Source: Lishizhenia tianjinensis (GTDB lineage: Bacteria > Bacteroidota > Bacteroidia > Flavobacteriales_D > Crocinitomicaceae). From it: a stretch of DNA of 33,469 bases. The stretch lies in contig CAMDLY010000026.1 of NCBI GenBank assembly GCA_945902115.1, positions 1 to 33,469 on the forward strand, written 5' to 3'. The first letter of the stretch is position 1. Every line of letters begins with the position of its first letter. Positions 7,001 through 33,469 of this stretch are shown here, in pieces. A model generated the notes under the pieces. It saw nothing but the letters and a program-made list of their open reading frames with translations, was not told where the DNA came from and made no database searches. The position numbers and the translations under genes are program-made.

Positions 7001-7818
7001 TCACTCCACTTGTTCCTGTTCTTCAATCCTATTGGTTGATGATTCACGTGGCCATAATTACCGGAAGTTACGGCTTCCTTGGTCTAGGAGCCATTTTAGG
7101 GTTAATAAATACCCTTCTATTTATTTTCAAACGACAGAAGAATAAAACCATTCTAGATATCAATATCAGCGAATTAACCTATGTCTCGGATATGACAATC
7201 ACCATCGGTTTATTCATGTTAACCATCGGAACCTTTTTAGGGGGTGTATGGGCCAATGAATCGTGGGGAAGGTATTGGGGTTGGGATCCGAAAGAAACGT
7301 GGGCACTGGTTTCAGTGCTCGTTTATGCAATTCTTTTGCACCTGCGATTTATCCCACAAACCAATACAAAGTTTATATACAACACATTTTCTCTTTGGGG
7401 ATATTCCGCTATCCTATTCACGTTTTTTGGGGTAAACTTTATGTTGGTGGGTTTACACTCATATGCGCAAGGGGAAGGACTTGGTAGCTTACCGAGTTGG
7501 TTGCTTTACACCGTAGCCATATTTTATTTTATCTCCGAGCTAGCCGCTACACGCAATACGTTAATGGAAAATACTAAGGACCGATCCTTAAAAACTGTGG
7601 TGAAATATATTGCCATCAAATTGGTGATAGTTACGAGTATTTTCTTGAGCGTTTACCTCATCTTTAAAAGTTATATAGATAGCAGTAATCCTGCGCAAGA
7701 TTACTTATTTACCTCGTTTAAGTACTTGGAATATGCCCTGCTCACGCTTTTGGTAATTGTTGGGGTTAACGCCTTGCTTATCCCACTTAAAATGAGGTGG
7801 ATATTAAAATCCTGGTAA
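4054..7818 (+). CDS. ccsA: Fused ResB-CcsA (CcsBA) cytochrome c heme-lyase
   Basis: A 1254-residue fusion of the two subunits of system II cytochrome c synthetase, which carries heme across the inner membrane and attaches it to CXXCH apocytochromes. The N-terminal ResB/Ccs1-like half begins with membrane segments, including a helix with the TM histidine motif LTFHLSFIFILIGAG. A periplasmic region ends YDGYRFFQSSYK, followed by another helix near residue 470. A long soluble stretch of about 370 residues comes next. The C-terminal CcsA half is polytopic and has the WWD heme-handling motif (ESWGRYWGWDPKETW), with flanking conserved His residues in SGHAPWSNGYEAL and in LVGLHSYAQG. Fused long CcsBA proteins are known in Bacteroidota. 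The ATG at 4054 is chosen over 4036 because of the -7 box just upstream. It overlaps the next gene by 1 nt (TAATG), so an operon is likely. Confidence 0.93.
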   Translation: MNFTIINTILKEFFSMRLMALALFVFLAAIAIATFIESLYGIQAAKILVYNHWWFEILLVYLGMSLISNITRYKMWQREKIAMLTFHLSFIFILIGAGITRKIGFEGIMVVPEGSEINYIYSGDPHLLINIQNPKKKESAATFIEEKKLLSIITNNDFDLSYEFEGKPLTISYVDFKAKCTKAIESNASIKEFGIELFTNGRKSNALFKEEVLSVSDVPITLNTPLEAPGIEIKSFGDSLMIKSAVPIEVVKMSELKQEEQKTGIQDSTKIKKIPVNIWYPFTTRTLYKVGNDQFVFNRILANSRRGLVPTGNLKEGLDYLTVSVTYDGKQKEVQLEGGMGNVPTPEKFELGEMILQLEYGAIRKTLPFTITCKDFQLDHYPGSQAPSSFASVVQVKDPRSGEKFDQRIFMNNVMDYDGYRFFQSSYKLDDPSTPENEEATVLQVNSDFWGTNITYFGYLMMSIAMILSLFASVGRFRLLNQKLKGLQERRKNLSGIPILLGILCFQQVSIAQINDHSSPDLVDFSAYHQVVSEDHSDKLAKLLIQEIKYNHEQHQFTPTGRIIPFHTIADRLLRKIYRGTSFDGKNPVQVIFSMHLYQQHWAKQNIIQVPTAVRERLKLNEYASLSELTAENGQFKWMEAYEKAHIKLESQRSEFDKKLIKLNEKFEVVKGIFSWNYFRMAPLDKDKQNRWLQPKRMYEGIVNPYVLDTAFFHVNLEDFQQANDTSNYLLFAEMYNALYPSKNINEILAMPPPTLFIDILHFSPIQKAQQSGNYKHAEELLGNYKNFLEKFVNLSPADVETSISILRYVLITTDEAARTGDFTKADALLEKIIARQRSIGKDVVPSETMVDAEIRYNKMQIFKNTGYGYALCGFLMLILFFWQLFIRPDGKLYRILNVIVKVFFWLIIAMFLYHGAGIGMRWAISGHAPWSNGYEALVFIAWVTMIAGIAFSRKNAAVLPATALLAFFMLFVTEQNLMDPEITPLVPVLQSYWLMIHVAIITGSYGFLGLGAILGLINTLLFIFKRQKNKTILDINISELTYVSDMTITIGLFMLTIGTFLGGVWANESWGRYWGWDPKETWALVSVLVYAILLHLRFIPQTNTKFIYNTFSLWGYSAILFTFFGVNFMLVGLHSYAQGEGLGSLPSWLLYTVAIFYFISELAATRNTLMENTKDRSLKTVVKYIAIKLVIVTSIFLSVYLIFKSYIDSSNPAQDYLFTSFKYLEYALLTLLVIVGVNALLIPLKMRWILKSW

Positions 7819-8510
7819 TGGATTCTTTGGCTAAACGCATACTATTTGAGGACAATCATGTCCTGGTGGTTAACAAACTCCCCTCGGAAATTGTGCAAGG
7901 CGACAAAACAGGTGACGAGCCACTTCCGGAGCTCATTAAAAGATTTCTTAAGGATAAATACCAAAAGCCTGGCAACGTGTTTTGTGGCGTAGTTCATCGC
8001 TTGGATCGGCCTACAAGTGGTGTGGTAGTTTTTGCGAAAACAAGCAAAGCATTGGAACGTCTTAATGGCCAATTCCGCGACAAAGAAACCAATAAAACCT
8101 ACTGGGCAATCGTAGAGCAGATACCTCAAGAACTAAAGGGTACACTTACAGATTACCTCAAAAAAAATGAGGCGCAAAACAAAAGCTATGTTGTCAACGC
8201 AACTGTTGCTGGTGCGAAACGAGCCGTGATGCACTACAGGCATTTGGCTTCCTCAGACAACTACCACTTGATGGAAGTTAAAATCGAAACCGGAAGGCAT
8301 CATCAGATCCGTGTGCAATTGAGTAAGATGGGCTGTATCATAAAAGGTGATTTAAAGTACGGTGCGAAAAGAGCAAATTCGGATGCCTCCATAGGATTAC
8401 ACGCCAGGTCATTGACATTTACTCACCCAACCACGAAAGAGGAAATGACGTTTGTGGCAAATCCCCCTGAGGACGCAGTTTGGAATTTTTTCTTGAAAAC
8501 GCTATGTTGA
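7818..8510 (+). CDS. RluA-family RNA pseudouridine synthase
   Basis: A 230-residue protein that isomerises specific uridines of rRNA or tRNA to pseudouridine. The catalytic motif HRLDRPTSG is present at residues 60-68, with the nucleophilic Asp63. The conserved later motifs YWAIVE and GRHHQIRVQL, with LKYGA after them, are also seen. It lacks an N-terminal S4 domain, like the shorter RluA/TruC-type members, so the exact target base cannot be named. The ATG at 7818 shares one base with the ccsBA stop codon; a GTG at 7797 is in frame but would add residues inside the ccsBA end. It overlaps queA by 7 nt, suggesting translational coupling. Confidence 0.92.
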   Translation: MDSLAKRILFEDNHVLVVNKLPSEIVQGDKTGDEPLPELIKRFLKDKYQKPGNVFCGVVHRLDRPTSGVVVFAKTSKALERLNGQFRDKETNKTYWAIVEQIPQELKGTLTDYLKKNEAQNKSYVVNATVAGAKRAVMHYRHLASSDNYHLMEVKIETGRHHQIRVQLSKMGCIIKGDLKYGAKRANSDASIGLHARSLTFTHPTTKEEMTFVANPPEDAVWNFFLKTLC

Positions 8511-9721
8511 AAGATAAAATCAGCAAGCTTTCGATGGATGCTTTTCGCTACGAACTTCCGGAAAATAAAATTGCTTTTTTTCCTTTAGAACCGCGAGACT
8601 CAAGTAAATTACTTGTTTATCGAGAGGGCCTTATTACAGATAAATATTACAAGGAACTGAACGAACAGCTACCTGAAAACACCCTATTGATCGCCAACAA
8701 CACCAAAGTAGTAGAAGCACGGCTCTTATTTGAAAAATCCAGCGGGGCAAAAATTGAGGTGTTTTGTTTGGAACCCGATACGCGCTATGCAGATGTGGTG
8801 ACAGGGATGCAGCAAAAGGGTAGTGTTTTTTGGAAATGCCTGATCGGAGGTGCTAAAAAATGGAAAGACGAAGTCTTGACGCTGACAAAGGGTGACATTA
8901 CGCTCAAAGTGAAAAAAACAGAAATAACGGGAAGTCCATCCCTACTGTGCTTCGACTGGAGTGCGGGAAACATTAGCTTCGCTGAAATACTGCATATTTT
9001 CGGAAATATTCCGCTACCGCCCTACATAAAACGTCAAGTAACTCCCCACGATCACCTGGGTTATCAAACGGTGTATGCACAACACGACGGTTCGGTGGCT
9101 GCACCAACAGCAGGTCTACATTTTACGGAAAACTTACTGAATCGTCTCAAAGCAACAAATATTCATACCCATTTCGTCACACTACACGTGGGTGCGGGAA
9201 CATTCATGCCCGTGAAGTCATCGACACTGGGAGATCATGAGATGCACGCAGAATACATCGATGTTTCTAAATCTTTTATTTTAAATTTCTTAGAACATCG
9301 TGGAGCCAAAGTGTGCGTGGGTACAACATCGCTGCGCACCTTAGAAACATTGTATTGGATGGGTGTTAAAGTGCTTACCCAACCAACTGACAACCTGGAA
9401 GGACTTAAAATCACCCAATGGGATGCCTACGAACTCCCGCAAGATACTCCGTGCAATACCGCCTTAAACGCTTTGGTGCATTGGATGTATGATAAGGATG
9501 TAGAAAATCTTGTGTTACCAACGCAATTGTTAATTGCTCCTGGCTATACCATTCGTTCCGTTGATGGTATTCTGACTAATTTCCATCAGCCGGAGTCTAC
9601 CTTGCTCCTGTTGATTCATGGGTTTGTTGGAGAGGATTGGAAACGCATATATGATCACGCTTTGTCAAATGATTACCGTTTTTTAAGTTTTGGGGACGGC
9701 AGTCTTTTGTGGAAAAGATAG
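8504..9721 (+). CDS. queA: QueA: SAM:tRNA ribosyltransferase-isomerase
   Basis: A 405-residue enzyme of queuosine synthesis that moves the ribosyl part of SAM to 7-aminomethyl-7-deazaguanine in tRNA, giving epoxyqueuosine. Family motifs in order are FRYELPENKIAFFPLEPRDSS near the N-terminus, VAAPTAGLHF, TLHVGAGTFMPVK, TTSLRTLE, and TNFHQPESTLLLLIHGFVG near the end. It is longer than the roughly 350 residues of the E. coli enzyme, with extra sequence in the middle. The ATG at 8504 overlaps the stop codon of the preceding gene. The last 24 codons and the stop are part of a 76-bp sequence duplicated exactly at 15483-15558. The -33 element of the downstream tRNA promoter lies inside its final codons. 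Confidence 0.94.
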   Translation: MLKDKISKLSMDAFRYELPENKIAFFPLEPRDSSKLLVYREGLITDKYYKELNEQLPENTLLIANNTKVVEARLLFEKSSGAKIEVFCLEPDTRYADVVTGMQQKGSVFWKCLIGGAKKWKDEVLTLTKGDITLKVKKTEITGSPSLLCFDWSAGNISFAEILHIFGNIPLPPYIKRQVTPHDHLGYQTVYAQHDGSVAAPTAGLHFTENLLNRLKATNIHTHFVTLHVGAGTFMPVKSSTLGDHEMHAEYIDVSKSFILNFLEHRGAKVCVGTTSLRTLETLYWMGVKVLTQPTDNLEGLKITQWDAYELPQDTPCNTALNALVHWMYDKDVENLVLPTQLLIAPGYTIRSVDGILTNFHQPESTLLLLIHGFVGEDWKRIYDHALSNDYRFLSFGDGSLLWKR

Positions 9722-9724
9722 GTT
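9649..9724 (+). repeat. 76-bp direct repeat, copy A (queA 3' end)
   Basis: These 76 bases, from the second half of an Ile codon through the queA TAG plus 3 nt, recur without a mismatch at 15483-15558 in the same orientation. To the left, weaker similarity appears to continue for about 17 nt (9632-9648 against 15466-15482, 10 of 17 matching by eye). To the right the copies diverge at once. The two copies bracket a 5.8-kb segment. Confidence 0.97.
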
Positions 9725-9735
9725 GATTAACTTTG
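9706..9735 (+). promoter_or_regulatory. Bacteroidetes-type promoter of tRNA-Pro
   Basis: The -33 TTTG at 9706-9709, an 18-bp spacer, and the -7 box TAACTTTG at 9728-9735 match the TTG / TAnnTTTG Bacteroidetes consensus. The box ends 6 nt before the mature tRNA 5' end at 9742. The -33 element lies within the queA coding sequence and within repeat copy A, while the -7 box lies just outside the repeat. Confidence 0.8.
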
Positions 9736-9741
9736 TATCAT

Positions 9742-9815
9742 CGGGATGTAGCGCAGTCCGGTAGCGTACACGTCTGGGGGGCGTGTGGTCGCAGGCTCGA
9801 ATCCTGTCATTCCGA
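9742..9815 (+). tRNA. tRNA-Pro (anticodon GGG)
   Basis: A 74-nt cloverleaf. The acceptor arm is CGGGATG paired with CATTCCG, with one G-T wobble. The D arm is GCGC/GCGT, the anticodon stem CACGT/GCGTG encloses the loop CTGGGGG with anticodon GGG, and the T arm is GCAGG/CCTGT with loop CTCGAAT. The discriminator base is A9815. No CCA is encoded (CTTTTT follows), so the tail must be added post-transcriptionally. The T-run directly after may end transcription. Confidence 0.95.
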
Positions 9816-9846
9816 CTTTTTACACACAAATTTCGTGAGTAACCAA

Positions 9847-10026
9847 TTAAATAATTTTTTTCAACTCACTTATCACCTTCTTCATCTCCTCATTATCCTT
9901 CTCTGTCTGAAATTTCTGATCCAAATAGGGTTTAACTTTGTTCCAGAAAATAAAATAATGAAGGAGCAATACTCCTGACCAAAGAAGAATGGAAAAAGAA
10001 AAGAATAGCAAAGGAAGAATACACCC
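9847..10026 (-). pseudogene. Possible gene remnant in the 9816-10131 gap
   Basis: The 316-nt stretch between the tRNA and the next gene holds no convincing intact gene. On the minus strand a frame stays open for 59 codons, bounded upstream by a stop at 10027-10029. It reads as a hydrophobic segment (PLLFFSFSILLWSGVLLLHY), then a charged helix (YLDQKFQTEKDNEEMKKVIS) and a stop codon. It has no plausible start codon. The arrangement (membrane helix, then a W/K/E-rich helix) vaguely resembles the end of short 2TM-type membrane proteins. It could be the tail of a decayed gene or a chance open frame; confidence is low. Confidence 0.25.
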
Positions 10027-10131
10027 TCAAGTAGCATAGCATCAGGGGGAAATAAATCGACTGAAACTTCAATTATGCCAGTTAGATCATTCTAGAATAA
10101 ATTAATATCTTTATAACATAATTTTTACGAT

Positions 10132-10608
10132 ATGCGAAATAGTTTACTCCTCACCCTTTTCTTACTAGGCTCTTTTTCATCCTTCTCCCAACAAATCGTG
10201 CGTTCCACTATCGGCTCAATCGGTTCTACGATGGGAAATGGAACAGTTACAATTCAACAAACAGCCGGTCAACCAAGCGCAACTTCTTTTGTGAAAAGCG
10301 AAAATGGTTCGGCACTTCGACAGGGATTTCACCAACCGTATTATTATGAAATTGAGCGCAATGATTTGAATGCTGCTATCTTTCCAAATCCGAACAACGG
10401 TCAATTTTCTTTTCAAGTGGATTTAGAAGCAAATGAAACCTTTAACTATGTATTGTCAGATCAAAACGGTAGAGAAATTCTAAAAAATATTGGTGATGGA
10501 AATCAATTAACCCAAGTTTCGATTGAACAACCTGCCACGGGTTTGTATCATTTACAAATCACGAGCGGAAAACGCATTTCATCCTTTAAAATCTCCGTAA
10601 TTCATTAA
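10132..10608 (+). CDS. Small secreted protein with T9SS type A sorting domain
   Basis: A 158-residue protein. The signal peptide is MRNSLLLTLFLLGSFSSFSQ. A short mature part of about 60 residues (rich in Gly, Thr and Gln) precedes a type A sorting domain at about 80-158. That domain starts AIFPNPNNGQFSF and carries the usual GLYHLQITSGKR strand near the end. In such short proteins most of the sequence is the sorting tail, so the cargo function is unclear. It is first in a closely spaced three-gene set (6 nt to the next gene, then 22 nt), ended by the terminator at 13290-13317, so a joint surface role is likely. A -7-like TATCTTTA about 20 nt upstream is imperfect. Confidence 0.82.
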   Translation: MRNSLLLTLFLLGSFSSFSQQIVRSTIGSIGSTMGNGTVTIQQTAGQPSATSFVKSENGSALRQGFHQPYYYEIERNDLNAAIFPNPNNGQFSFQVDLEANETFNYVLSDQNGREILKNIGDGNQLTQVSIEQPATGLYHLQITSGKRISSFKISVIH

Positions 10609-10614
10609 TAAATT

Positions 10615-11247
10615 ATGAAAAAAATCATTTTTTCTCTTTCCCTATTTGCGTTGAGTTTTGGCTCAAAAGCGCAAGACGGAAAACTTGTTCAGCAAGTAAA
10701 TTTCAATGCCGGAAAAACATTTTCTAGCTTCTTGTATACAGATGCCAATGGAAATAAAGACGAAAATTTAAGTTATCGTTCGGGAAATACTTACAATTTA
10801 AGTATAGGATTGGGCTTTGGTTCAAAACACCTATTGAGACCTGAAATTCAATATAGCGAGTTGGGTGCAACATCTAGCTTTTTAGATGCACCCTTAGATT
10901 GGAAATTAAATTATCTAGGAGTAGGAGCAACATATTTGTACAAAGCTCTGAATAAAGAGACTATTTCACTTTCTCCTGGGGTTATTGTTGGATATGAATA
11001 CTTGTTGAAAGGCGAACAAACCGTTGGAAATACACGATACGACTTAAACCAATTGGATGCAATTAAAACATGGGACTTAAACACGGGCTTGCTACTCAAT
11101 AGTCGTTTCAAAGTCACAGAATCTCTGTATCTGAATTTCGAATACCGATTTAACATTGGCTTGAATCAAATTGAAAATCAAGACCAAGGAGAAAAATCAA
11201 AAAACATTGGACATAAAGCCCTGTTGGGATTGTCTTTTAACCTTTAA
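10615..11247 (+). CDS. Outer-membrane beta-barrel protein
   Basis: A 210-residue protein with signal peptide MKKIIFSLSLFALSFGSKAQ. The mature part is a run of amphipathic strands of 8-12 residues with aromatic girdles (YNLSIGLGFGSK, LNYLGVGATYLYK, LYLNFEYRFNIGL) and ends in LLGLSFNL, an aromatic/aliphatic terminal strand typical of BAM-inserted barrels. It resembles the outer-membrane beta-barrel domain family common in Bacteroidota (the PorT/OmpA-barrel-like group). It lies between a T9SS-exported protein and a fibre-like protein with very short gaps, suggesting they form or anchor one surface structure. The exact function is not recognisable. Confidence 0.78.
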   Translation: MKKIIFSLSLFALSFGSKAQDGKLVQQVNFNAGKTFSSFLYTDANGNKDENLSYRSGNTYNLSIGLGFGSKHLLRPEIQYSELGATSSFLDAPLDWKLNYLGVGATYLYKALNKETISLSPGVIVGYEYLLKGEQTVGNTRYDLNQLDAIKTWDLNTGLLLNSRFKVTESLYLNFEYRFNIGLNQIENQDQGEKSKNIGHKALLGLSFNL

Positions 11248-11269
11248 ATAAATGCTTAAACATAGAATT

Positions 11270-13270
11270 ATGAAAAACGTCATTTTTAGTTTATTTACTA
11301 TTGTATTTACAGTTAGTCTTTTTGCGCAACAAGCACCTCCACAAGGGATTAATTATCAAGCGATGGTTTATGCACCATATGGAAATCAACAAGTGGGTGT
11401 AAACAGTGCAGGACAAATTCCTGCTAATACGAAACAAGTTCTGGTGAAATTTACGTTGGAAGAAGGAAACAACGGTCCAGTGATTTATGAAGAAACACAT
11501 ACCGATACCACCGACCAATATGGTTTGTTGAACACGGTGATTGGAACAGGAACTCCAACATCTAACAGTCCGGGATTATTTAACCAAATTGATTGGAGTT
11601 TGGGAGATCCGTATTTGCGTGTTAGCATAACCTTAACAGAATACAATTCCACGGTTTCATCGTATCAGAAGTTATGGAGCGTACCTTATGCTTTGTATGC
11701 GGATGAGGCTAACTCAGCGGATTATGCAACCAACAGCGGTCACGCTGATTCTTCAGATTATGCCAATCAAGCAGGAAATGGCATCACAGGAGTAACTGAT
11801 AATGGAGATGGCACCTTGACTTTTAATTATTTTAATGGAAGTATCTACACAACAGGAGTTTTAATTGGTTTAATGGGACAACAAGGACCAGCAGGACAAA
11901 ATGGAACAAATGGAACAAACGGACCAAGTGCTTATGACATTTGGTTATCACAAGGAAACACTGGAACGGAACAAGATTTTTTGAATAGTTTAACTGGCCA
12001 ACAAGGAACTCCTGGTTCGCAAAATGCTTGGAGTTTAACTGGAAATACAGGAACAAACCCAACAACTAATTTTATTGGAACCACCGATGCGCAAGATTGG
12101 GCGATTAAAACGAATAATATAGAAAGAATGAGAGTTACTTCTTCTGGAAATCTTGGCATTGGGACGAGTAGTCCTGCTTCAAATTTAGAAGTTGTTGGTT
12201 TATCGAAATTTGGAATTGGAGGTCAAGCATCAATGGAGCTTTCTTGGGATAATGGCACTCTACTTTCACCTTTAGCTACTTTAAACTCACACTCAGGTGG
12301 GTTAATAAAAGCACCGTTACAAAGTAATTTAATAATGCAAATACGCGGAAACCATTTTGATGATGGATTAATGGTTGTTACAGATAAAAATTTAGATGGG
12401 ACTCCTGATGCAATTCCTTTCAAGGTTCTTTCTAATGGAAATGTTGGAGTTGGGCGATCTATGCCCACTCAACAATTTCACGTTAATAACGACGTTTCTG
12501 GCTCTGATAGTTCTTTTGTTGTAACAGCTGATGGAAAGGTTGGAATTGGGACAAACGCGCCAGATGGGAAATTTCATATTGTTGATAATGCCGGTTCGTT
12601 TTATAGAGATTTTGGAGGGACCACTTGGATTTCTAGGAGTTCTGGGAATGTGCTTTTTTTAACTAATTCAGGGAACTCAACAACTAATACAAGTATATTG
12701 ACATTTCAAAGAGGAGATGGTTCTGGTAGTGATGCTGCATTTTTAACAAGCAGTAATGGTTTAAATGGGGTTAATGCATTTTCTTTTTCAATTGGTGGTG
12801 CAATTCGACAAGTTTGGAATTCAAATGGTAATATTGGAATTGGTACAGGCACACCCGACGCTCTTTTAAGTGTAAACGGTAATGCATCCAAAGCTGGTGG
12901 AGGCTCTTGGGCTACGTTTTCAGATAAGCGAGTTAAGCATGACATAAATCAATTTAATGATGGATTGGATGTATTAATGAAATTGAACCCAGTAACGTTT
13001 AAATACAATGAAAAGTCAGGTTATACAGATGTAAACAAAACCTTTGTAGGTTTCATAGCACAAGATGTTGAGCAAGTTGCACCTTATATGGTTAATATAT
13101 ATGACGATTCAAATGGCCCTAGCGGTCTTTCTGACAAACGACAATTTGACGAAAGTGCTTTGAATAAAATTCTCGTAAATGCTGTTCAAGAGCAACAAGC
13201 GCAAATAGAACAATTGAAAAGGGAATTGGAGGAAATGAAAACGGCAATTAAAGAGTTGAAGAAGAATTAA
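11270..13270 (+). CDS. Collagen-like surface fibre protein with S74 chaperone domain
   Basis: A 666-residue secreted protein. The ATG at 11270 opens a signal peptide (MKNVIFSLFTIVFTVSLFAQ); an ATG at 11252 is in frame but less suitable. Residues about 20-150 form the domain often found in Bacteroidota cell-surface proteins (PPQGINYQAMVY, then LWSVPYALYAD). A short collagen-like Gly-x-y stretch follows (GQQGPAGQNGTNGTNGPS), then SAYDIWLSQGNTGTEQDFLN at about residue 220, a motif seen next to collagen-like tracts and in phage tail fibres. Repeats of the NLGIGTSSP / NVGVG type lie between. The C-terminus is a peptidase S74-type intramolecular chaperone: SDKRVKHDINQF at about 551, then FVGFIAQDVEQVAP. 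The Ser551/Lys556 pair matches the positions that cut the chaperone off in phage tail spikes. It ends in a coiled coil (about 630-666). The terminator at 13290 follows. Confidence 0.88.
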   Translation: MKNVIFSLFTIVFTVSLFAQQAPPQGINYQAMVYAPYGNQQVGVNSAGQIPANTKQVLVKFTLEEGNNGPVIYEETHTDTTDQYGLLNTVIGTGTPTSNSPGLFNQIDWSLGDPYLRVSITLTEYNSTVSSYQKLWSVPYALYADEANSADYATNSGHADSSDYANQAGNGITGVTDNGDGTLTFNYFNGSIYTTGVLIGLMGQQGPAGQNGTNGTNGPSAYDIWLSQGNTGTEQDFLNSLTGQQGTPGSQNAWSLTGNTGTNPTTNFIGTTDAQDWAIKTNNIERMRVTSSGNLGIGTSSPASNLEVVGLSKFGIGGQASMELSWDNGTLLSPLATLNSHSGGLIKAPLQSNLIMQIRGNHFDDGLMVVTDKNLDGTPDAIPFKVLSNGNVGVGRSMPTQQFHVNNDVSGSDSSFVVTADGKVGIGTNAPDGKFHIVDNAGSFYRDFGGTTWISRSSGNVLFLTNSGNSTTNTSILTFQRGDGSGSDAAFLTSSNGLNGVNAFSFSIGGAIRQVWNSNGNIGIGTGTPDALLSVNGNASKAGGGSWATFSDKRVKHDINQFNDGLDVLMKLNPVTFKYNEKSGYTDVNKTFVGFIAQDVEQVAPYMVNIYDDSNGPSGLSDKRQFDESALNKILVNAVQEQQAQIEQLKRELEEMKTAIKELKKN

Positions 13271-13289
13271 TTCACTATCAAAAATTTTT

Positions 13290-13317
13290 AAAACCACCTC
13301 ACTCGGGGTGGTTTTTT
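13290..13317 (+). terminator. Rho-independent terminator
   Basis: A perfect 9-bp stem AAAACCACC / GGTGGTTTT encloses the 8-nt loop TCACTCGG, and a run of T follows. It lies 19 nt after the stop codon of the S74-domain gene and closes the 10132-13270 unit. Confidence 0.85.
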
Positions 13318-13334
13318 GTTTTGTGGGGTTTGGG

Positions 13335-13440
13335 AAACCATTGAAATGGTTGGGGGATGTGTGGTTATTCTCCTAGGTGTCGGATTAATCCGACACCTAG
13401 GAGGTGGTTAATGGGATTTCAATATCATTTCAACGATTTA
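13335..13440 (+). repeat. Transposase-flanking element, copy 1 (34-bp perfect palindrome)
   Basis: The constant left part is AAACCATTGAAATGGTT (13335-13351), itself able to fold with AACCATT/AATGGTT, followed by GGGGGATGTGTGGTTAT. The centre is a perfect palindrome at 13370-13403, of which one half is CTCCTAGGTGTCGGATT. The constant right part holds ATGGGATT (13411-13418) and ATCATTTCAACGATTTA (13424-13440). TTGAAATG on the left (13341-13348) can pair with CATTTCAA on the right (13426-13433), which would enclose the central hairpin. Its last 3 bases are the transposase stop codon. Confidence 0.85.
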
Positions 13441-13887
13441 ATCATTATCCATTTTTACATCCTCAAACCCATGCAATTGTATGAATTTAATGTATTCCGA
13501 TTCAAATGTTTTATTATTGTGATGTTGTTTTTGGTCGCGAATGTAACGGTACACATTATCCACTGCGGAATGTGAAACACCAAACGCACCAAACCCTCGC
13601 TGCCAACTAAATTTTTCGGGAGTTGAATTATTGCTGTTTACAAAATGAGAGCTGCTCCCTTTAATCTGTTTAATAATATCCGTGATTGATATTTGAGGAT
13701 TGATTCCAAATAAACAATGAACATGGTCCGGCATTCCATTGACAATACTCACCATACAACCCATTTTTTTCAATTCCTCTTTTAGAAAACTAAATAATTT
13801 TTGTTCCATTTTTGAATGAATTAGAGGTATTCTGTTTTTTGTTGACCAAACGGCATGAACCCAAATTTTTGAATACGATTTTGACAT
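13438..13887 (-). CDS. REP-associated/IS200-type Y1 transposase (HUH)
   Basis: A 149-residue single-strand DNA transposase of the Y1_Tnp (Transposase_17) family. It starts MSKSYSKIWVHAVWSTKNRI, where the WSTKNR region is typical of the family. The HUH metal-binding motif is H55-V-H57 in GMPDHVHCLF. The catalytic tyrosine is probably Y115 in YIRDQKQHH (Y113 is also close). The FSWQRGFGAFGVSHS region near residue 93 is characteristic of this branch. These enzymes recognise hairpins in single-stranded DNA, nick them and hold the 5' end through the Tyr. All key residues are present and the frame is intact, so it may be active. Its natural substrates here are the two flanking elements; the 3' end of the gene runs into copy 1. 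Confidence 0.93.
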   Translation of the reverse strand: MSKSYSKIWVHAVWSTKNRIPLIHSKMEQKLFSFLKEELKKMGCMVSIVNGMPDHVHCLFGINPQISITDIIKQIKGSSSHFVNSNNSTPEKFSWQRGFGAFGVSHSAVDNVYRYIRDQKQHHNNKTFESEYIKFIQLHGFEDVKMDND

Positions 13888-14012
13888 TTTTAATTTTTTT
13901 TCTATTGAAGTTACGTCTTAAAAAGATTATTTTATAATCATTATTTTGATTGTTTATTCGTATATTTAGTTGGAGAGAATTTATGATGAGAAATTGTTTT
14001 AGAGGCTTGAGT

Positions 14013-14115
14013 AAACCATTGAAATGGTTTGGGGATTGTGTGGTTATAAACCCATAATATGGGTTGCATCCATGGGATTGAATCGTGGTAATATGATAAT
14101 CATTTCAACGATTTA
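14013..14115 (+). repeat. Transposase-flanking element, copy 2 (17-bp palindrome)
   Basis: The left part AAACCATTGAAATGGTT (14013-14029) and the following GGGGATTGTGTGGTTAT agree with copy 1 apart from one T inserted and one G/T change. The central palindrome is unrelated to that of copy 1: AACCCATAATATGGGTT at 14049-14065. The right part again has ATGGGATT (14072-14079) and an exact ATCATTTCAACGATTTA (14099-14115), with about 14 nt more between them than in copy 1. It is oriented the same way as copy 1 and lies upstream of the transposase start. The rest of the 13888-14250 gap holds AT-rich sequence and the inverted repeat at 14168-14209. Confidence 0.85.
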
Positions 14116-14167
14116 TCCCCCAAATCGAGCACGAAATCAATAAACATCAGATAATCTCAATCCCTTC

Positions 14168-14209
14168 TTAATGACGAAAAATGAAGAAAATATATTTTTT
14201 CGTCATTAA
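14168..14209. promoter_or_regulatory. 14-bp perfect inverted repeat upstream of the ATPase gene
   Basis: TTAATGACGAAAAA (14168-14181) and TTTTTCGTCATTAA (14196-14209) are exact inverted copies separated by 14 nt. The right arm ends 6 nt before the -7 box at 14216, placing the repeat over the -33 region. A dimeric-repressor operator is the simplest reading. It could instead be a terminator-like hairpin for upstream transcription or the end of a transposed unit. No regulator gene is nearby. Confidence 0.6.
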
Positions 14210-14215
14210 CATTCG

Positions 14216-14223
14216 TATATTTG
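14216..14223 (+). promoter_or_regulatory. -7 box (TATATTTG) of the ATPase gene
   Basis: TATATTTG fits TAnnTTTG and ends 27 nt before the TTG start at 14251. It overlaps the earlier in-frame TTG at 14221, which makes that codon an unlikely start. No clear -33 TTG exists because the inverted repeat occupies the region. Confidence 0.5.
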
Positions 14224-14250
14224 AACTTCATTTATAAAACAATTACTATT

Positions 14251-15456
14251 TTGATTCGGCGAGAAATTTATTTGCAGAAGCTTCATCAGTTAAAAGACCA
14301 TGACCTAATAAAAGTGGTCACAGGTATTAGACGGAGTGGAAAGTCTACTTTGTTGGAGGCTTTTAAAAATGACTTAATAGAGAGTGGAATAGCACAAGGA
14401 GATATATTTTTTTTGAATTTTGAAGAACGTGAAAATTTGCACCTTACAGAATGGACCGCGCTCTATGACGAGATTATAAAATCGCGTTTATCAGAAAAAA
14501 AAACATATATTTTTCTGGATGAAGTTCAGTTGGTAACTAATTTTGAAAAACTAATTAATGCGCTTTATTCCAAGAAAAACATAGATTTATATGTGACAGG
14601 TTCCAATGCTTATTTGCTTTCTAGTGAACTCGCTACTTTGCTTACAGGCAGATACATTGCCATAAACGTTCAGCCTTATTCATTTGCAGAATACGTCGAA
14701 GCAAACAAAGAAGAGAAAAATACCGATAGGTTATTTCGCCAATACATAAATACGAGTAGTTTTCCCGGAGCAGTAACACTAGCGCAAAGCGATCAAACTT
14801 TAGTAAACGATTATTTGCAATCCATTTATGATACAGTAATTATAAAAGATATCGCACAGCGTAATAAATTGCGTAATTTGAATAACTTGCACCGTGTCAT
14901 TAGTTTTGTTTTTGATTGTGTTGGATCGTACATCTCCCCAACCAATATTGCTGCAGAACTTAGTAAAAAACCATCAAAATCTATTTCTCATAACACGATT
15001 ATCAAGTACTTGGAATTTTTGACTAACTCATATATTATTTATCCTGCCCCACGTTTCGATATAAAAGGAAAGGAATTATTAACCACTAATCAAAAATATT
15101 ATCTAGTGGATTTAGGGTTGAAAAATATAACTACAACCAATAAATACGATTCGGATTTAGGTCGAAAATTGGAGAATGTTGTTTATTTTGAATTACTAAG
15201 ACGCGGTGGAAAAATTTATGTTGGAAAAAACAACGACAAGGAGATTGATTTTATCGTGCAAAAACCCAGTAATGAAAGGGAATATTATCAGGTAGCTCAT
15301 AGTGTTAATGACGAAAAAACATTTAATCGAGAGATTTCGGCATTTAGAAACATTCGTGATAATTATCCAAAATTTTTACTTACATTAGACTATGATAGCG
15401 TCAATATTGATGGCGTGCAAAAGATAAATGTTATAGATTGGTTATTAAATCAGTAA
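14251..15456 (+). CDS. AAA_14 / DUF4143 orphan ATPase
   Basis: A 401-residue protein of the large ATP-binding family with an AAA_14 domain followed by DUF4143. Walker A is GIRRSGKST (residues 25-33, Lys31). Walker B is TYIFLDEVQ (Asp90, Glu91). The sensor region VTGSNAYLLSSELATLLTGR and the family motif PYSFAEY follow. A winged-helix-like middle (residues about 240-310) leads to a C-terminal restriction-endonuclease-like fold with DLGLKN, LENVVYFELLRRG and KEIDFIVQ. The biological role of these proteins is poorly known. No ATG exists near the expected start; TTG at 14251 gives the usual family beginning (MIRREIYLQKLHQLKD). It stands alone, flanked by the inverted repeat and by repeat copy B 26 nt after its stop codon. 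Confidence 0.9.
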   Translation: MIRREIYLQKLHQLKDHDLIKVVTGIRRSGKSTLLEAFKNDLIESGIAQGDIFFLNFEERENLHLTEWTALYDEIIKSRLSEKKTYIFLDEVQLVTNFEKLINALYSKKNIDLYVTGSNAYLLSSELATLLTGRYIAINVQPYSFAEYVEANKEEKNTDRLFRQYINTSSFPGAVTLAQSDQTLVNDYLQSIYDTVIIKDIAQRNKLRNLNNLHRVISFVFDCVGSYISPTNIAAELSKKPSKSISHNTIIKYLEFLTNSYIIYPAPRFDIKGKELLTTNQKYYLVDLGLKNITTTNKYDSDLGRKLENVVYFELLRRGGKIYVGKNNDKEIDFIVQKPSNEREYYQVAHSVNDEKTFNREISAFRNIRDNYPKFLLTLDYDSVNIDGVQKINVIDWLLNQ

Positions 15457-15482
15457 AAAGCGAATGGGAACAGGTAAGGCAG

Positions 15483-15558
15483 ATATGATCACGCTTTGTC
15501 AAATGATTACCGTTTTTTAAGTTTTGGGGACGGCAGTCTTTTGTGGAAAAGATAGGTT
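15483..15558 (+). repeat. 76-bp direct repeat, copy B (detached queA 3' end)
   Basis: An exact copy of 9649-9724: the last 24 queA codons, the TAG and 3 nt. Here the queA frame has a stop (TAA, 15475-15477) just upstream, so it cannot be expressed as QueA. The -33 TTTG of the tRNA promoter is included, but the -7 box is not. Its last base is the first base of the minus-strand stop codon of the next gene (15558-15560). Confidence 0.97.
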
Positions 15559-16226
15559 TAATTTATGCTCTCCAAAAAACTTAAAAATTCGTTATTAACG
15601 AGATGTGCTTTTTCGATAGTTTTATAGTTTTCATATGGAATATACGTTGCTATGTTAATCATCATATCTTTAATAAATATGAAACTCAAAGTTGAAACTG
15701 ATGCTACCCCATTTGCTACATTAAACATAGTTACTATTAATTTTTGATTGATGATTTTTTTATCCAACATTATTATTGTAACGGGATAATCTTCTTTAAA
15801 TATATTTGGGTGAGTTTTAATATACTCATCGATTTTAAAATCCCATTGTATGTTAGAGAATTTTTTTTCTAATGATTTCATCACTAAAACTTTAATTGAA
15901 TCATTTATTTTCTTGTTCAACTCTGGAGTCAGGGTCCAAACCTTGATGTAGTCAGTATTAATTTTGGTTTGATTTTCATCTTTAAGAAAAATATCTCCAC
16001 CCGGCTTTTTAACATAAAGGGCCAAAGGATACTCAGACTGAACAGAAGTCGAGTTTAGAAGCTTTATGGCCTTATTGAAACTTGAAATTTCCTGCCAATC
16101 ATCCATTAATGGTAAATCAATGGTGTCTTTGTTAATGAAAATAGATTTTGAGTATAAAGTCTTTTTTTGACCCAAACTTACTAGACAAATCATTAGAATT
16201 AATAAAGAAAAAACAAAACGCATCAT
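15558..16226 (-). CDS. Secreted protein of unknown function
   Basis: A 222-residue protein with signal peptide MMRFVFSLLILMICLVSLGQ; a second ATG at 16223 is equally possible. The mature part is Lys/Ile/Asn-rich with no cysteines and no motif I recognise. It alternates predicted strands and helices (IKVWTLTPELNKKINDSIKV, KDMMINIATYIPYENYKTI). It is probably periplasmic or outer-membrane associated. It is transcribed divergently from the GH1 gene across a 56-nt AT-rich gap, and a TATATTTA box lies just upstream of its start. Its stop codon coincides with the end of repeat copy B, so the rearrangement breakpoint lies exactly at this gene's end. Confidence 0.7.
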   Translation of the reverse strand: MMRFVFSLLILMICLVSLGQKKTLYSKSIFINKDTIDLPLMDDWQEISSFNKAIKLLNSTSVQSEYPLALYVKKPGGDIFLKDENQTKINTDYIKVWTLTPELNKKINDSIKVLVMKSLEKKFSNIQWDFKIDEYIKTHPNIFKEDYPVTIIMLDKKIINQKLIVTMFNVANGVASVSTLSFIFIKDMMINIATYIPYENYKTIEKAHLVNNEFLSFLESIN

Positions 16227-16282
16227 CGTTTTAAATATATTATAAGTTATTAATTTTATCGTAATAAAATTATAGAATTAAT

Positions 16283-17698
16283 TTGAACTTCAATACTCTC
16301 TTACTGATTTTCGTTTTACTTTCCTTTCATTCGTTTTCACAAAATGGGGATAGTACTGACGGTGCCTTGTTTGCCTCTTTTGGAGAAGAATTTCTTTGGG
16401 GAACAGCCACGGCTGCTTATCAAATCGAGGGCGCTTGGGATGTTGATGGTCGTGGGCCTTCCATTTGGGATGCTTTCAGTCAGAAAGCAGGCAATATAAA
16501 AAACAGCGACAACGGAAATGTAGCCACAGACTTCTACCACCGCTACAAGGAAGATATCCAACTCGCCAAAGACATGCATTTTGAGGTCTTCCGTTTTTCC
16601 ATCTCTTGGTCACGTATTTTTCCCACGGGTACGGGAGAAATAAATGAAAAAGGCCTCGCGTTTTACCACGCTGTTATTGACGAATGCCTGCAGCAAGGTC
16701 TACAACCATGGATAACGCTTTATCACTGGGATTTACCGCAAGCCCTGCACAAAAAAGGAGGCTGGGCAAATAGAGATATTATCACTTGGTTCGGAGAATA
16801 TACGAAACTGTGCGCACGCGAATTTGGCTCAAAAGTAAAACATTGGATGGTGTTCAATGAACCTTCAGCATTTATAGGCCTAGGCTATTTAGCCGGTTAC
16901 CACGCGCCAGGAAAAATAAACCCCACGGCATTTCTCAAAGCGAGCCACCATGCGTGTTTGGCGATGGCGGAAAGTGGTCGCGTGTTGCGTGAAGAAATCC
17001 CCGGTGCTCAGATAGGTACCACGTTCAGCTGTTCGATGGTAGATCCATGGAGAGAAAATGGCAAACACGAAAAAGCTGTTAAGCGAATGGATGCTTTATT
17101 AAATAGAATGTATATTGAACCAAGTCTCGGTCTCGGCTACCCAGAAAAAGACTTCCCATTTCTTCGCAAAATAAAGCGACATCAGCTGCCTGGAGATGCG
17201 GAAAAATTAGCCTTTGATTTCGATTTTATAGGCTTGCAAAACTATTTTCGGATCGTCGTTAAAAAAAGTCCTTTAATACCATTTGTTTGGGCTAGACAAA
17301 TCAGTGCGAAAAAACGAGACATGCCCTACAATGACATGGGCTTTGAAATATATCCTGAGGGGATTTACCGCATCCTCAAACAGTTTTCGCAATACGAAGG
17401 CATCAAGAACATGGTGATCACGGAGAATGGAGTGTGTACTAGAGATTCGCTAGTAGGCAATAAAATTCACGACCCTGAACGCATAGATTTTTTCCGTAAT
17501 TACCTCGGTCAAGTGCTTAAGGCTAAAAACGAAGGGGTTCCTATTTCCGGTTATCTCGTTTGGAGTTTAACGGACAATTTCGAATGGACGGAAGGTTATG
17601 CCCCAAGGTTTGGCTTAGTTTACATTGATTACCTCACTCAAAAACGCATCGTAAAAGATTCAGGATTTTGGTTTGAAAAGCATTTGAAAAGGGAATAA
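16283..17698 (+). CDS. Secreted GH1 beta-glycosidase
   Basis: A 471-residue family 1 glycoside hydrolase, probably a beta-glucosidase, hydrolysing beta-linked sugars from oligosaccharides by the retaining mechanism. The N-terminal family motif is FLWGTATAAYQIEGAW. The acid/base Glu193 sits in FNEPSA and the nucleophile Glu381 in ITENGV. Substrate-binding elements YHWDLPQAL and SLTDNFEWTEGYAPRFGL are intact. Residues 1-20 form a signal peptide (MNFNTLLLIFVLLSFHSFSQ), so the enzyme acts in the periplasm or outside; many GH1 enzymes are cytoplasmic. No ATG precedes the signal peptide in frame, and the TTG at 16283 is the only sensible start. No T9SS tail is present. Confidence 0.93.
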   Translation: MNFNTLLLIFVLLSFHSFSQNGDSTDGALFASFGEEFLWGTATAAYQIEGAWDVDGRGPSIWDAFSQKAGNIKNSDNGNVATDFYHRYKEDIQLAKDMHFEVFRFSISWSRIFPTGTGEINEKGLAFYHAVIDECLQQGLQPWITLYHWDLPQALHKKGGWANRDIITWFGEYTKLCAREFGSKVKHWMVFNEPSAFIGLGYLAGYHAPGKINPTAFLKASHHACLAMAESGRVLREEIPGAQIGTTFSCSMVDPWRENGKHEKAVKRMDALLNRMYIEPSLGLGYPEKDFPFLRKIKRHQLPGDAEKLAFDFDFIGLQNYFRIVVKKSPLIPFVWARQISAKKRDMPYNDMGFEIYPEGIYRILKQFSQYEGIKNMVITENGVCTRDSLVGNKIHDPERIDFFRNYLGQVLKAKNEGVPISGYLVWSLTDNFEWTEGYAPRFGLVYIDYLTQKRIVKDSGFWFEKHLKRE

Positions 17699-32900: not shown

Positions 32901-33469
32901 CCAGCGCCGATTGTCGTTCAATGTTCAGCAGATATACCAGCTAATGATATTGCTGTAGTGATAGATGAAGCAGATAACTGTACCGTAAATCCTGTCGTGG
33001 CTTTTGTAAGTGATGTTAGCGATGGAAATACCTGTCCTGAAGTAATCACTAGAACATATTCCGTAACAGATGACTGTAACAATGCTATCACTGTCACGCA
33101 AACCATCACCGTAGACGATACCACCCTGCCAACAGCGAGTAATCCAGCGCCGATTGTCGTTCAATGTTCAGTAGATGTTCCACTATCAGATGTAGCAGTA
33201 GTAATTGATGAAGCAGATAACTGTACCGTAAATCCTGTCGTGGCTTTTGTCAGTGATGTTAGCGATGGAAATACCTGTCCTGAAGTAATCACTAGAACAT
33301 ATTCCGTAACAGATGACTGTAACAATGCTATCACTGTAACACAAACCATCACCGTGGACGATACCACCCTGCCAACAGCTAGTAATCCAGCGCCTATTGC
33401 CGTTCAATGTTCAGCAGATGTTCCACTATCAGATGTAGCAGTAGTATTTGATGAAGCAGATAACTGTAC
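29979..33469 (+). CDS. Giant secreted repeat protein (HYR/Ig-like), 3' end outside window
   Basis: One open frame of about 1163 codons runs off the right edge. There is no in-frame ATG near the start. TTG at 29979 begins a proper signal peptide (MDLNSLKYFFLLLFTFSIGG, then VLFSQA). Residues about 26-260 are a Cys-rich globular region (GECCGQANNFNCF, TQDACVDNFVVYGL). Ig/PKD-like domains follow to about 490 (CTSNPTITATPSGGQAPFTY; AGPDQLICANSTTS). HYR-like modules come next: one divergent copy of the 81-residue type (from 31458), one divergent copy of the 80-residue type (about 31690-31919), four near-identical 80-residue units (31920-32879), then 81-residue units from 32886 to the edge. A T9SS type B tail would be expected further right. 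Likely a very long surface adhesin. Confidence 0.9.
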   Translation, partial: MDLNSLKYFFLLLFTFSIGGVLFSQASNFACETGAVGTSTYVPTYNINLSSSPAASASQAIIIPSSGLGECCGQANNFNCFVLAVTLNPGAQGIQFNLSGASGNASIWYSNCSIGPFNVGYTFCISGVGPHYFTFCRTGATDYGVVIQSIAAPSNSGDVITQDACVDNFVVYGLQESSITWNSISPGTMGQYNNYLSNMQGGNVGTSGVTYTNQDSVRVTPPSGAPATIQYQVCGNTVGTVCAASIPYCATVSVTVVPTLGVSITPSNPILCTSNPTITATPSGGQAPFTYLWSGPSNNGATSASIVPSVAGTYSVIVNDASGCPAISGSTTVFASPVITGTSNQTLCLNQNSLPTNFTSVNPNTTFTWTNNNTSTGIPASGSGNLPAYLLTGVGVSTITVTPALFGCVGTPSIFTITVNALPNVNAGPDQLICANSTTSVTASGANTYVWTPSVTNGVNFTATTSGTYTITGTDGNGCQNSDDLLITFDNILPTASNPAGVSVQCSADVPLPDVSVVTDEADNYGIPTVNWLSDVTSGACPTTLTRTYRVTDQCGNFINVTQLFTIVPSTDPIIPANGSSTLSCPSQSQVQPTPPIVTDVCGNILTPAISTSSNIVCEGVKTWTFTFTDCAGNSSVWTYTYTIDYSGGLTAPANGSSTVSCPSAAVDPSAPTNITDACGRTVSAVLVGQDDPTPACNGNVVWRYRYTACDATTTADWTYTYTIDYSGGLTAPANGSSTVSCPSAAVNPGAPANITDACGRTVSAVLVGQDDPTPACNGNVVWRYRYTACDGTTTADWIYTYTIDYSGGLTAPANGSSTVSCPSAAVNPGAPANITDACGRTVSAVLVGQDAPTPACEGSVVWRYRYTACDGTTTADWTYTYTIDYSGGLSAPANGSSTVSCPSAAVDPGAPANITDACGRTVSAVLVGQDNPTPACNGNVVWRYRYTACDATTTADWIYTYDFNENIPPTASNPAPIVVQCSADIPANDIAVVIDEADNCTVNPVVAFVSDVSDGNTCPEVITRTYSVTDDCNNAITVTQTITVDDTTLPTASNPAPIVVQCSVDVPLSDVAVVIDEADNCTVNPVVAFVSDVSDGNTCPEVITRTYSVTDDCNNAITVTQTITVDDTTLPTASNPAPIAVQCSADVPLSDVAVVFDEADNC
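31920..32879 (+). repeat. Four tandem 240-bp repeats (80-residue units)
   Basis: The units begin at 31920, 32160, 32400 and 32640 with an exact 240-bp period and keep the reading frame. Each encodes GGLTAPANGSSTVSCPSAA, ITDACGRTVSAVLVGQD and VVWRYRYTACD. Base differences are few and are shared between units in a patchwork: GATGCTACAACAAC in units 1 and 4, GATGGCACAACAAC in units 2 and 3, and a private GAAGGATCAGTC in unit 3. Unit 4 changes to unrelated sequence in its last 15 or so bases. Confidence 0.95.
32886..33469 (+). repeat. Tandem 243-bp repeats (81-residue HYR-like units)
   Basis: The units begin at 32886, 33129 and 33372; the last is cut by the window edge. Each encodes PTASNPAPIVVQCSADVPLS, DEADNCTVNPVVAFVSDVSD and YSVTDDCNNAITVTQTITVD with only scattered base changes. 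A much older copy of the same module stands at 31458-31690 in the same protein. Confidence 0.95.

What the first reader, a model, noticed from the sequence alone, without database searches (positions are those of the whole stretch)
9649..15558. Exact 76-bp queA-tail duplication brackets a 5.8-kb accessory segment
The 3' end of queA plus its stop codon and 3 nt (9649-9724) occurs again at 15483-15558, same direction, no mismatch. The second copy follows 26 nt after the AAA_14/DUF4143 ATPase gene and is cut off from any queA frame. Between the copies lie tRNA-Pro, a possible gene remnant, three surface genes, a RAYT transposase unit and the ATPase. A duplicated gene end with an intact gene on one side and an orphan tail on the other is what site-specific integration into a gene's 3' end leaves behind, the island having supplied a replacement tail. 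Weaker similarity just left of the repeat (about 10 of 17 bases) fits a donor carrying a related site. No integrase is visible, so the element may be a remnant, may move in trans, or the copy may come from another duplication mechanism. I know of no described element that uses the queA 3' end as a target.
Basis: partly seen in the sequence, partly recalled or inferred. Interest (0 to 1): 0.72.

Follow-up and report, generated by a model that had tools for sequence, protein, structure and literature searches.

The report
Defence gene bracketed by duplicated gene-tail
A stretch of DNA ending in a candidate anti-virus gene was inserted right behind a tRNA-modification gene, leaving a second copy of that gene's last 76 letters on its far side, and the same pattern surrounds this gene family at other places, which hints at a shared way for such genes to move.

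Summary
The 76-bp exact direct repeat is real and occurs only twice in this genome. The gene is a sporadic ~400-aa QueA paralogue ('queA2'), not the canonical queA. The predicted empty site exists: relative G069 has queA2, one tail, then the window's right-hand gene order, without the 5.8 kb. So the segment is an insertion. It is a mosaic ending in an AAA_14/DUF4143 ATPase, PADLOC phage-defence candidate PDC-S01. The ATPase unit is 95% identical in G029, where an orphan Fic-gene tail follows at the same point; both junctions share ATATGAT. The pattern recurs: 21 of 113 such ATPase genes have direct repeats across their flanks versus 5 of 236 other ORFs; inverted repeats do not differ. Of 13 gene-3'-end repeats 11 enclose this ATPase; others enclose PDC-S04, -S09 or -S13 genes. 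Best reading: integrase-less defence cassettes that recombine into gene 3' ends. The recombinase is unknown, most ATPase copies show no repeat, and microhomology-driven insertion remains a serious rival. The interest lies in the family-wide pattern more than in queA.

The parts
7797..8510 (+). rluA-like pseudouridine synthase gene, left neighbour; overlaps the start of queA2
   Evidence: ORF; ccsA-rluA pair kept in 19 of 20 same-genus relatives whose loci were read; rluA-queA2 also in G070; name by similarity, no profile run
8504..9721 (+). queA2, second QueA paralogue, target gene (intact)
   Evidence: PF02547 E 7.4e-91; full-length relatives in 9 of 37 same-genus genomes, own included
9649..9724 (+). 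copy A of the 76-bp repeat: end of queA2 plus 3 nt
9742..9816 (+). tRNA-Pro(GGG)
   Evidence: ARAGORN
10132..10608 (+). T9SS-sorted protein
   Evidence: PF18962
10615..11247 (+). outer-membrane barrel-like protein (below Pfam cut-off)
11252..13270 (+). fibre protein with S74 chaperone domain
   Evidence: PF13884
13441..13887 (-). Y1 transposase (IS200/RAYT type)
   Evidence: PF01797, NF033573
13370..13403 (.). perfect 17-nt-arm palindrome of the RAYT/REP unit
14140..15489 (+). ATPase unit shared with G029 at 95% identity
14221..15456 (+). AAA_14/DUF4143 ATPase, PDC-S01 (start codon may be further in)
   Evidence: PF13173, PF13635; PDLC04787 E 3.3e-144
15483..15489 (+). ATATGAT, shared by ATPase flank and queA2 tail; crossover lies here
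15483..15558 (+). copy B: orphan queA2 tail
15558..16226 (-). orphan ORF of 222 aa, no match in the other 36 of 37 genomes searched
16283..17698 (+). GH1 glycosidase, first of eight genes in the order kept in G069
   Evidence: PF00232

Best explanation
The 5.8-kb segment is an insertion behind queA2, and the part that explains the duplicated tail is the ATPase unit at its right end. AAA_14/DUF4143 ATPases (PDC-S01), and apparently other singleton defence candidates, behave as small cassettes without their own integrase that enter the 3' end of resident genes by one recombination event, probably as a circle carrying a copy of, or a short match to, that gene's tail. The resident gene stays intact on one side and an orphan tail is left on the other. 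Shown: insertion, exact duplication, a near-identical ATPase unit in another species with its native flank, the 7-nt crossover stretch, and the recurrence of gene-tail repeats around the family. Inferred: circular intermediate, single crossover, which recombinase acts, and whether the tRNA, surface genes and RAYT unit came along or were added later between copy A and the ATPase.
For: Empty site in G069 with one tail. ATPase unit 95% identical in G029, followed there by an orphan Fic C-terminal domain (PF21247, E 1.7e-19) at the same point, both junctions at ATATGAT. 21 of 113 tested ATPase ORFs have a direct repeat (21-278 nt) across their 1-kb flanks versus 5 of 236 other ORFs of 300-600 aa (Fisher p 1.8e-7); inverted repeats 1 of 113 versus 2 of 236. 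35 of 69 dispersed direct repeats enclose such an ATPase, 13.2-14.5 expected; of 13 that end within 30 nt of a gene's stop codon 11 do, the window's included. Background not chosen for the ATPase: 1 gene-tail repeat in 80 stretches (1.40 Mb) and 2 in 20 stretches of the genus and order (0.255 Mb). Own genome, C84: 119-nt repeat, 97.5%, ending 2 nt past the stop of an S9 peptidase gene. In G075 and G087 the intact and orphan tails of a GT9 gene share a core (identical in G087, two mismatches in G075) but end in different C-termini (GIGLEI/GIGLKI versus GALALED), as a crossover between two alleles would leave; the same gene family is the target of a distant ATPase (about 24% identity) in G004 and G024.
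Against: 92 of 113 ATPase ORFs, the window's own among them because its left copy is 4.5 kb away, show no repeat within 1 kb. Of 14 plasmid-borne relatives, 1 had repeats within 1 kb and 1 more within 2.5 kb. No shared recombinase was found, and no dif-like inverted core in any of 11 repeat units beyond shuffles. Of 22 bracketed ATPases, flanks were compared with the loci on hand; I established an empty site for the window only (most loci could not answer). The window has 4.5 kb between copy A and the ATPase, where the 21 others have 30-373 nt. G003 and G074 share one orphan tail but hold different cargo, so there the repeat may be older than the ATPase. G005 has an insertion behind queA2 without tail duplication. 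Control ORFs are mostly not recent acquisitions: three small families taken as accessory controls had repeats in 1 of 5 (KilA-N), 2 of 9 (ORF6N, both in one locus) and 5 of 7 (RAYT, from its REPs), a rate like the ATPase's; four KilA-N, ORF6N and RhuM proteins checked are themselves PADLOC candidates, which widens the claim but does not give a clean control.
Confidence: 0.55

Rival explanations
1. Microhomology-driven insertion, for example template switching: a copying fork or an incoming fragment left the chromosome after the queA2 tail, copied the foreign segment and returned 76 bp upstream at the 7-nt match ATATGAT. The 76 bp are an accidental overlap and the ATPase is passive cargo.
For: 7-nt match at the right junction between the ATPase's native flank and queA2; variable repeat lengths (21-278 nt); mosaic content; no recombinase on the contig; G005 insertion without tail duplication.
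Against: Does not by itself explain why repeats are enriched around this ATPase family, why 11 of 13 gene-end repeats enclose it, or the two different tail alleles in G075/G087.
Confidence: 0.27
2. Remnant of, or cargo mobilised in trans by, a classical tyrosine-integrase island that uses the queA2 3' end; the integrase was lost or acts from elsewhere, such as the XerA/integron-like protein on contig C70.
For: Intact gene plus orphan tail, empty site; XerA/integron-like recombinase in the genome.
Against: No integrase on the contig; no inverted core above shuffles; copy B's left flank is the ATPase's native flank with 7 nt in common, so a 76-nt shared attachment site was not there beforehand unless an earlier event made it; other bracketed units hold little more than the ATPase.
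Confidence: 0.1
3. Tandem duplication of the region followed by deletion, leaving a 76-bp stub of a second queA2.
For: queA2 changes neighbourhoods often.
Against: Needs two events with convenient ends; G069 shows the order before insertion with one tail.
Confidence: 0.04
4. Assembly artefact: the 76-bp repeat joins pieces wrongly.
For: The genome is a 105-contig assembly; no reads were available.
Against: The ATPase flank at copy B matches an independent genome up to the junction, the right side matches G069 from 16242 on, and similar brackets occur in many other genomes.
Confidence: 0.04

Closest known systems
Genomic islands and prophages that integrate into the 3' end of tRNA or protein genes by tyrosine recombinases (example: direct-repeat-flanked islands of P. 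fluorescens Pf-5, PMC2647930, passages seen)
   Same: Intact gene on one side, orphan tail as direct repeat on the other, empty site in a relative.
   Different: No integrase on the contig, as little as one gene between the repeats, many different target genes, repeat lengths of 21-278 nt. In Pf-5 queA is only a neighbour of a tRNA-Leu site, not the target.
PDC-S01, candidate single-gene phage defence (PADLOC; passages of PMC12988326 seen)
   Same: The window ATPase matches PDC-S01 at E 3.3e-144; AAA_14 plus DUF4143; the paper describes an ATPase fused to a PD-(D/E)-X-K superfamily domain.
   Different: That paper's main text has 0 occurrences of 'direct repeat', 'integrase', 'insertion site', 'attachment' and 'flank'; movement by duplicated gene tails is not its subject.
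Transposons with target-site duplications, including IS200/RAYT units
   Same: Direct repeats flank an insertion; a RAYT unit lies inside this one.
   Different: Repeats are longer and variable; the RAYT unit has its own REP-like flanks and is nested.

Membership tests
Integrase-type genomic island at a gene 3' end | direct repeat made of the gene's 3' end, intact gene plus orphan tail | tested here: met
Integrase-type genomic island at a gene 3' end | empty site with one tail in a relative | tested here: met
   G069, tail 84% over 56 nt, right side 75-76%; its contig starts inside queA2. Not the same species
Integrase-type genomic island at a gene 3' end | integrase gene inside or beside the element | tested here: not met
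   PF00589 hits only on contigs C1, C5, C70, C94; serine recombinases not searched
Integrase-type genomic island at a gene 3' end | inverted core-type site within the repeat | tested here: not met
   ungapped scan; 113 of 200 shuffles as good for the window unit
Integrase-type genomic island at a gene 3' end | excised circle | not testable with these tools
   needs reads or PCR
PDC-S01 | profile match over the whole protein | tested here: met
   PDLC04787, E 3.3e-144, residues 11-410 of 411
PDC-S01 | anti-phage activity | not testable with these tools
   passage of PMC12988326: experimental validation pending for most of these candidates
AAA+ ATPase with PD-(D/E)XK-like domain | fold | tested here: inconclusive
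   model pLDDT 88.4; best PDB matches are archaeal AAA+ ATPases 2fna and 2qen; the nuclease-like part was not identified separately (Card1 only at rank 28, TM 0.20)
Transposon with target-site duplication | transposase acting on the element's ends | tested here: not met
   only the nested Y1_Tnp gene among the nine proteins scanned

The most novel reading that the evidence does not exclude
PDC-S01 ATPases, and other singleton defence candidates, are autonomous or self-assisted mobile genes: a new kind of integrase-free, one-gene element that inserts at the 3' ends of host genes and rebuilds the gene it enters, the ATPase/nuclease-like protein itself being part of the machinery.
Probability: 0.2. 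Interest if true: 0.9.

Novelty: new variant of a known kind. Interest (0 to 1): 0.68.

Why it matters
PDC-S01 is described as the fourth most common defence candidate across prokaryotes (passage of PMC12988326), and how such single genes spread without an integrase or transposase is, as far as I know, open. A repeated footprint, a duplicated gene tail, would give a direct handle: it marks recent insertions, gives their borders to the base, names target genes and predicts a circle that can be sought. It would also separate recent arrivals from old residents when defence repertoires are compared.

Tried and rejected
Early reading dropped: G005 has queA2 followed by a T9SS-protein fragment and a RAYT fragment, and I first took this to mean that the segment is older than the duplication. 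The genus-wide search then showed closer RAYT relatives elsewhere (G100, G095, G093), G005 turned out to have a TPS-OMP-S74-REP locus on another contig, and G070 showed the site of the G005 insertion unoccupied. So G005 is best read as a second insertion behind queA2; the similarity of its cargo to the window's is not explained.

queA2 moves between gene neighbourhoods with sharp gene borders (G003 versus G033); considered as the source of the repeat and left open. tRNA-Pro as attachment site: the relatives whose flanks I printed (10 loci) show no common flank with the repeat. RAYT or REP as cause: REP-like repeats lie around the RAYT gene, not at the 76-bp repeat. Viral, phage or plasmid origin: no exact match of a 27-nt piece of the tail in viral contigs, no relative of queA2 there by the patterns used; the segment's DNA matches plasmids and phages only in the tRNA and short coding pieces. 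At protein level the ATPase does have relatives in 237 of 72,556 plasmid records, 173 of them Acinetobacter, and in 19 of 50,697 phage records, so carriage by such elements is not excluded. dif-like core in the repeats: not above shuffles. PDB sequence search with the ATPase: 0 hits.

Paper searches: 'queA attB integrase' 1 paper, passages seen, another target; 'DUF4143' 1 paper, listing only; 'AAA_14 transpos' listing, unrelated; 'ATPase DUF234 mobile' listing only; 'PDC-S01' 3 papers, passages of two seen, one listing only; 'guilt-by-embedding / phage defence' listing only; two combined searches, one empty, one listing with nothing to the point. The library holds open-licence papers only; the paper that named the PDC families was not among those seen.

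Rows dropped and choices: repeats with both copies inside ORFs of 150 aa or more were left out (121 raw pairs, 69 kept after this and merging). In one search one of the 8 'controls' with a repeat (L305:5127) was itself an AAA_14 protein; one search uses a profile instead. Stretches were picked from the lists roughly in list order, leaving out places near contig ends; two of them (L304, L363) overlap by about 5 kb. Dropping three possible repeats of one event gives 18 of 110 versus 5 of 236, p 2.8e-6; the number three was my own estimate. Of 15 plasmid stretches fetched, one (L413) was not tested because its left flank is only 0.4 kb.
Full report
OBSERVATION. The two 76-bp stretches are identical and in the same direction; a search of the whole genome (2.52 Mb, 105 contigs) finds these two places only. 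With ten more bases to the left the copies are 97% alike over 86 nt. Copy A is the end of a complete gene; copy B starts 26 nt after the stop codon of an AAA_14/DUF4143 ATPase gene and ends on the stop codon of an orphan ORF on the other strand. Between them lie tRNA-Pro(GGG), a T9SS-sorted protein, a barrel-like protein, an S74 fibre protein, a Y1 transposase unit and the ATPase.

THE TARGET GENE. The protein matches PF02547 but is a second, longer paralogue; the genome's canonical QueA lies on another contig and aligns at 37% identity. Of the 37 same-genus genomes searched, G000 included, 9 have a full-length relative of this paralogue (51-100% identity); the others show only the canonical gene, fragments or nothing, and several are incomplete. 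Its neighbours differ in most of these genomes, and in G003 and G033 the DNA is 89.6% identical over the gene alone while the flanks are unrelated. ccsA-rluA is an old pair in the genus (19 of 20 same-genus relatives read), and none of the 29 other rluA loci read has queA2 within the 1.5 kb fetched.

EMPTY SITE. A DNA search of 86 genomes of the genus with window 9560-16290 found G069, contig C59, which starts inside queA2: queA2, one tail, 46 nt, an unrelated minus-strand ORF, then GH1, VWA, hydrolase, p19875, aroC, p21748, waaL-like and ABC-F in the window's order and orientation, 75-76% identical DNA from window 16242 on. It has no second tail and none of the segment's genes was found in it. 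G070 has ccsA-rluA-queA2, like the window's left side, followed by another gene, and one tail. The window's arrangement is therefore best read as an insertion behind queA2. The minus-strand ORF right of copy B is not the one found in G069 (no blastp match), so that short piece has also changed, and base composition is low across 13.8-16.2 kb on both sides of copy B. In G005 a different 4-kb segment, with a KilA-N gene (PDC-S22) and arsenic-type genes (names recalled), sits behind queA2 relative to G070; it has no tail duplication.

THE JUNCTION AT COPY B. Window 14140-15489 is 95% identical over 1352 columns to G029 contig C38. There the ATPase stop is followed by GAATGGGAACTGACACGGCAGATATGATTAGAATTGC, in the window by GAATGGGAACAGGTAAGGCAGATATGATCACGC; copy A reads GGAAACGCATATATGATCACGC. 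So the left flank of copy B is the ATPase's own flank, and the change from ATPase flank to queA2 tail happens within ATATGAT, which both parents share. In G029 what follows is a 72-aa ORF that is the C-terminal domain of a Fic protein (PF21247, E 1.7e-19): again an orphan gene tail, of another gene, at the same point.

THE PATTERN IN THE FAMILY. I fetched stretches around ATPases of this family from the lists regions in all, not every listed place. With the window and a few loci already held, 103 stretches (1.19 Mb; same genus and some of the same order) gave 124 ATPase ORFs by a profile, of which 113 could be tested. A direct repeat with one copy in each 1-kb flank (blastn E at most 1e-4) was found for 21 of 113, against 5 of 236 other ORFs of 300-600 aa in the same stretches (p 1.8e-7); inverted repeats for 1 of 113 and 2 of 236. 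The window's ATPase counts as a miss here. A smaller first test gave 8 of 44 versus 8 of 189. Counted without starting from genes, 69 dispersed direct repeats were kept, 35 enclose an ATPase (13.2-14.5 expected by random placement); 13 end within 30 nt of the stop codon of a gene of 100 aa or more, and 11 of these enclose an ATPase, the window's among them. The targets include an S9 peptidase gene in this same genome (119 nt, 97.5%), a GT9 glycosyltransferase gene, a 2348-aa protein, a 380-aa dehydrogenase-like gene and a DUF1304-like gene (the last two names are recalled). In 80 stretches fetched with queA2 from genome contigs (1.40 Mb) there was 1 gene-tail repeat, and in 20 stretches of the genus and order not chosen for the ATPase (0.255 Mb; some chosen for RAYT or TPS matches) there were 2.

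WHAT LIES BETWEEN OTHER TAIL REPEATS. Of the two without an ATPase, one (L313) encloses a Fic protein (PDC-S04/SoFic); the other (L361) no ORF. Of the three, one (L096, a Chryseobacterium MAG) encloses a PDC-S13 protein, one (G003) a PDC-S09 protein, one is a pair of RAYT tails. The ATPase itself is PDC-S01 in PADLOC (E 3.3e-144). G003 and G074 share the orphan tail of one gene but carry a PDC-S09-containing, HEPN/MNT-like pair (name recalled) and a PDC-S01 ATPase respectively between the tails. In plasmid NZ_CP048656.1 (Acinetobacter indicus) the ATPase stands beside a BREX locus with two direct repeats across its flanks (78 and 59 nt, 76-78%), one of them starting inside the preceding HNH gene; in related plasmids (H201, H217) a Fic gene is listed between the HNH and DUF4236 genes. 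Of 14 plasmid loci tested outside the genus, this is the only one with repeats within 1 kb; Ilyobacter has one within 2.5 kb.

A USEFUL CASE. In G075 and G087 the intact GT9 gene and the orphan tail share a core (identical in G087, two mismatches in G075) but have different C-terminal codons and stop codons on either side of the ATPase. A plain target-site duplication would give two equal copies; a crossover between the resident gene and a tail brought in from another allele gives this. The same GT9 family is also the target in G004 and G024, with an ATPase only about 24% identical to the one in G075/G087.

CONTROLS AGAINST. Most ATPase copies (92 of 113) show no repeat. Small accessory families gave repeats at a similar rate: KilA-N 1 of 5, ORF6N 2 of 9 in one locus, RAYT 5 of 7 because of its REPs. 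The four KilA-N, ORF6N and RhuM proteins that I then scanned are PADLOC candidates too (PDC-S22, PDC-S05), so they fit a wider class of singleton defence candidates, but a clean control of recently gained non-defence genes is missing. For 22 bracketed ATPases I compared both flanks with the loci on hand; only the window gave a clear empty site, as few loci could answer.

MECHANISM. Best supported: single-crossover insertion of small cassettes at gene 3' ends, with gene-tail identity or a short match as the crossover region. Steps shown: insertion, duplication, a near-identical ATPase unit in another species, position of the crossover, recurrence. Steps inferred: circle, recombinase, order of arrival of the other cargo. 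The genome's tyrosine recombinases are XerD (C1), an XerC-like protein (C5; best model XerC, below its cut-off), a XerA/integron-like protein (C70) and a fragment on C94; none is on this contig. The 76-nt unit has no dif-like core above shuffles. RecA-mediated exchange, an unknown recombinase in trans, or the ATPase with its DUF4143 domain are all open. The AlphaFold model is confident (pLDDT 88.4) and resembles archaeal AAA+ ATPases 2fna and 2qen.

NOVELTY. Islands at gene 3' ends with tail duplication are well known (general knowledge; examples at tRNA genes). What I did not find described, in the searches named under Tried and rejected, is the recurrent association of integrase-less singleton defence candidates with duplicated gene ends. 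The queA2 case itself is one clean and, by its 76 of 76 identity, recent example.

Noticed in passing
window 9742-9816: tRNA-Pro(GGG) differs from 96-97% identical relatives by a C for T in the T-loop (GGCTCGAAT) and a T for C that makes a G-U pair in the acceptor stem; the terminator-like hairpin seen behind several relatives is missing, and its upstream promoter-like sequence runs into the queA2 tail.
   Followed up: partly
window 8504-9721: The ~400-aa QueA paralogue is sporadic in the genus and stands in different neighbourhoods in most genomes that have it, with DNA similarity ending at the gene borders in one close pair: a relocating tRNA-modification gene.
   Followed up: partly
L242 (G000:C70) 6006-8999: A 279-aa XerA/integron-like recombinase preceded by an ORF6N-type gene and followed by two genes that resemble the window's T9SS-sorted and fibre proteins.
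   Followed up: no
L033 (G005:C9), oriented 9246-13215: Second insertion behind queA2: T9SS fragment, RAYT fragment, KilA-N gene (PDC-S22) and arsenic-type genes, without tail duplication.
   Followed up: partly
L408 and hits H201, H217: Acinetobacter plasmids carry either a PDC-S01 ATPase or a Fic gene between an HNH gene and DUF4236; in L408 this lies beside BREX.
   Followed up: no
L392 (G074:C83) and L035 (G003:C35): Shared orphan tail of a 380-aa gene with different cargo between the tails, and a further 555/556-aa AAA_14 gene behind it.
   Followed up: partly
window 31886-33469: Long tandem coding repeats (about 240-nt steps, 86-94% identical) in the last ORF at the contig end.
   Followed up: no
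L361 610-2241: 46-nt direct repeat at a gene end with no complete ORF between the copies.
   Followed up: no
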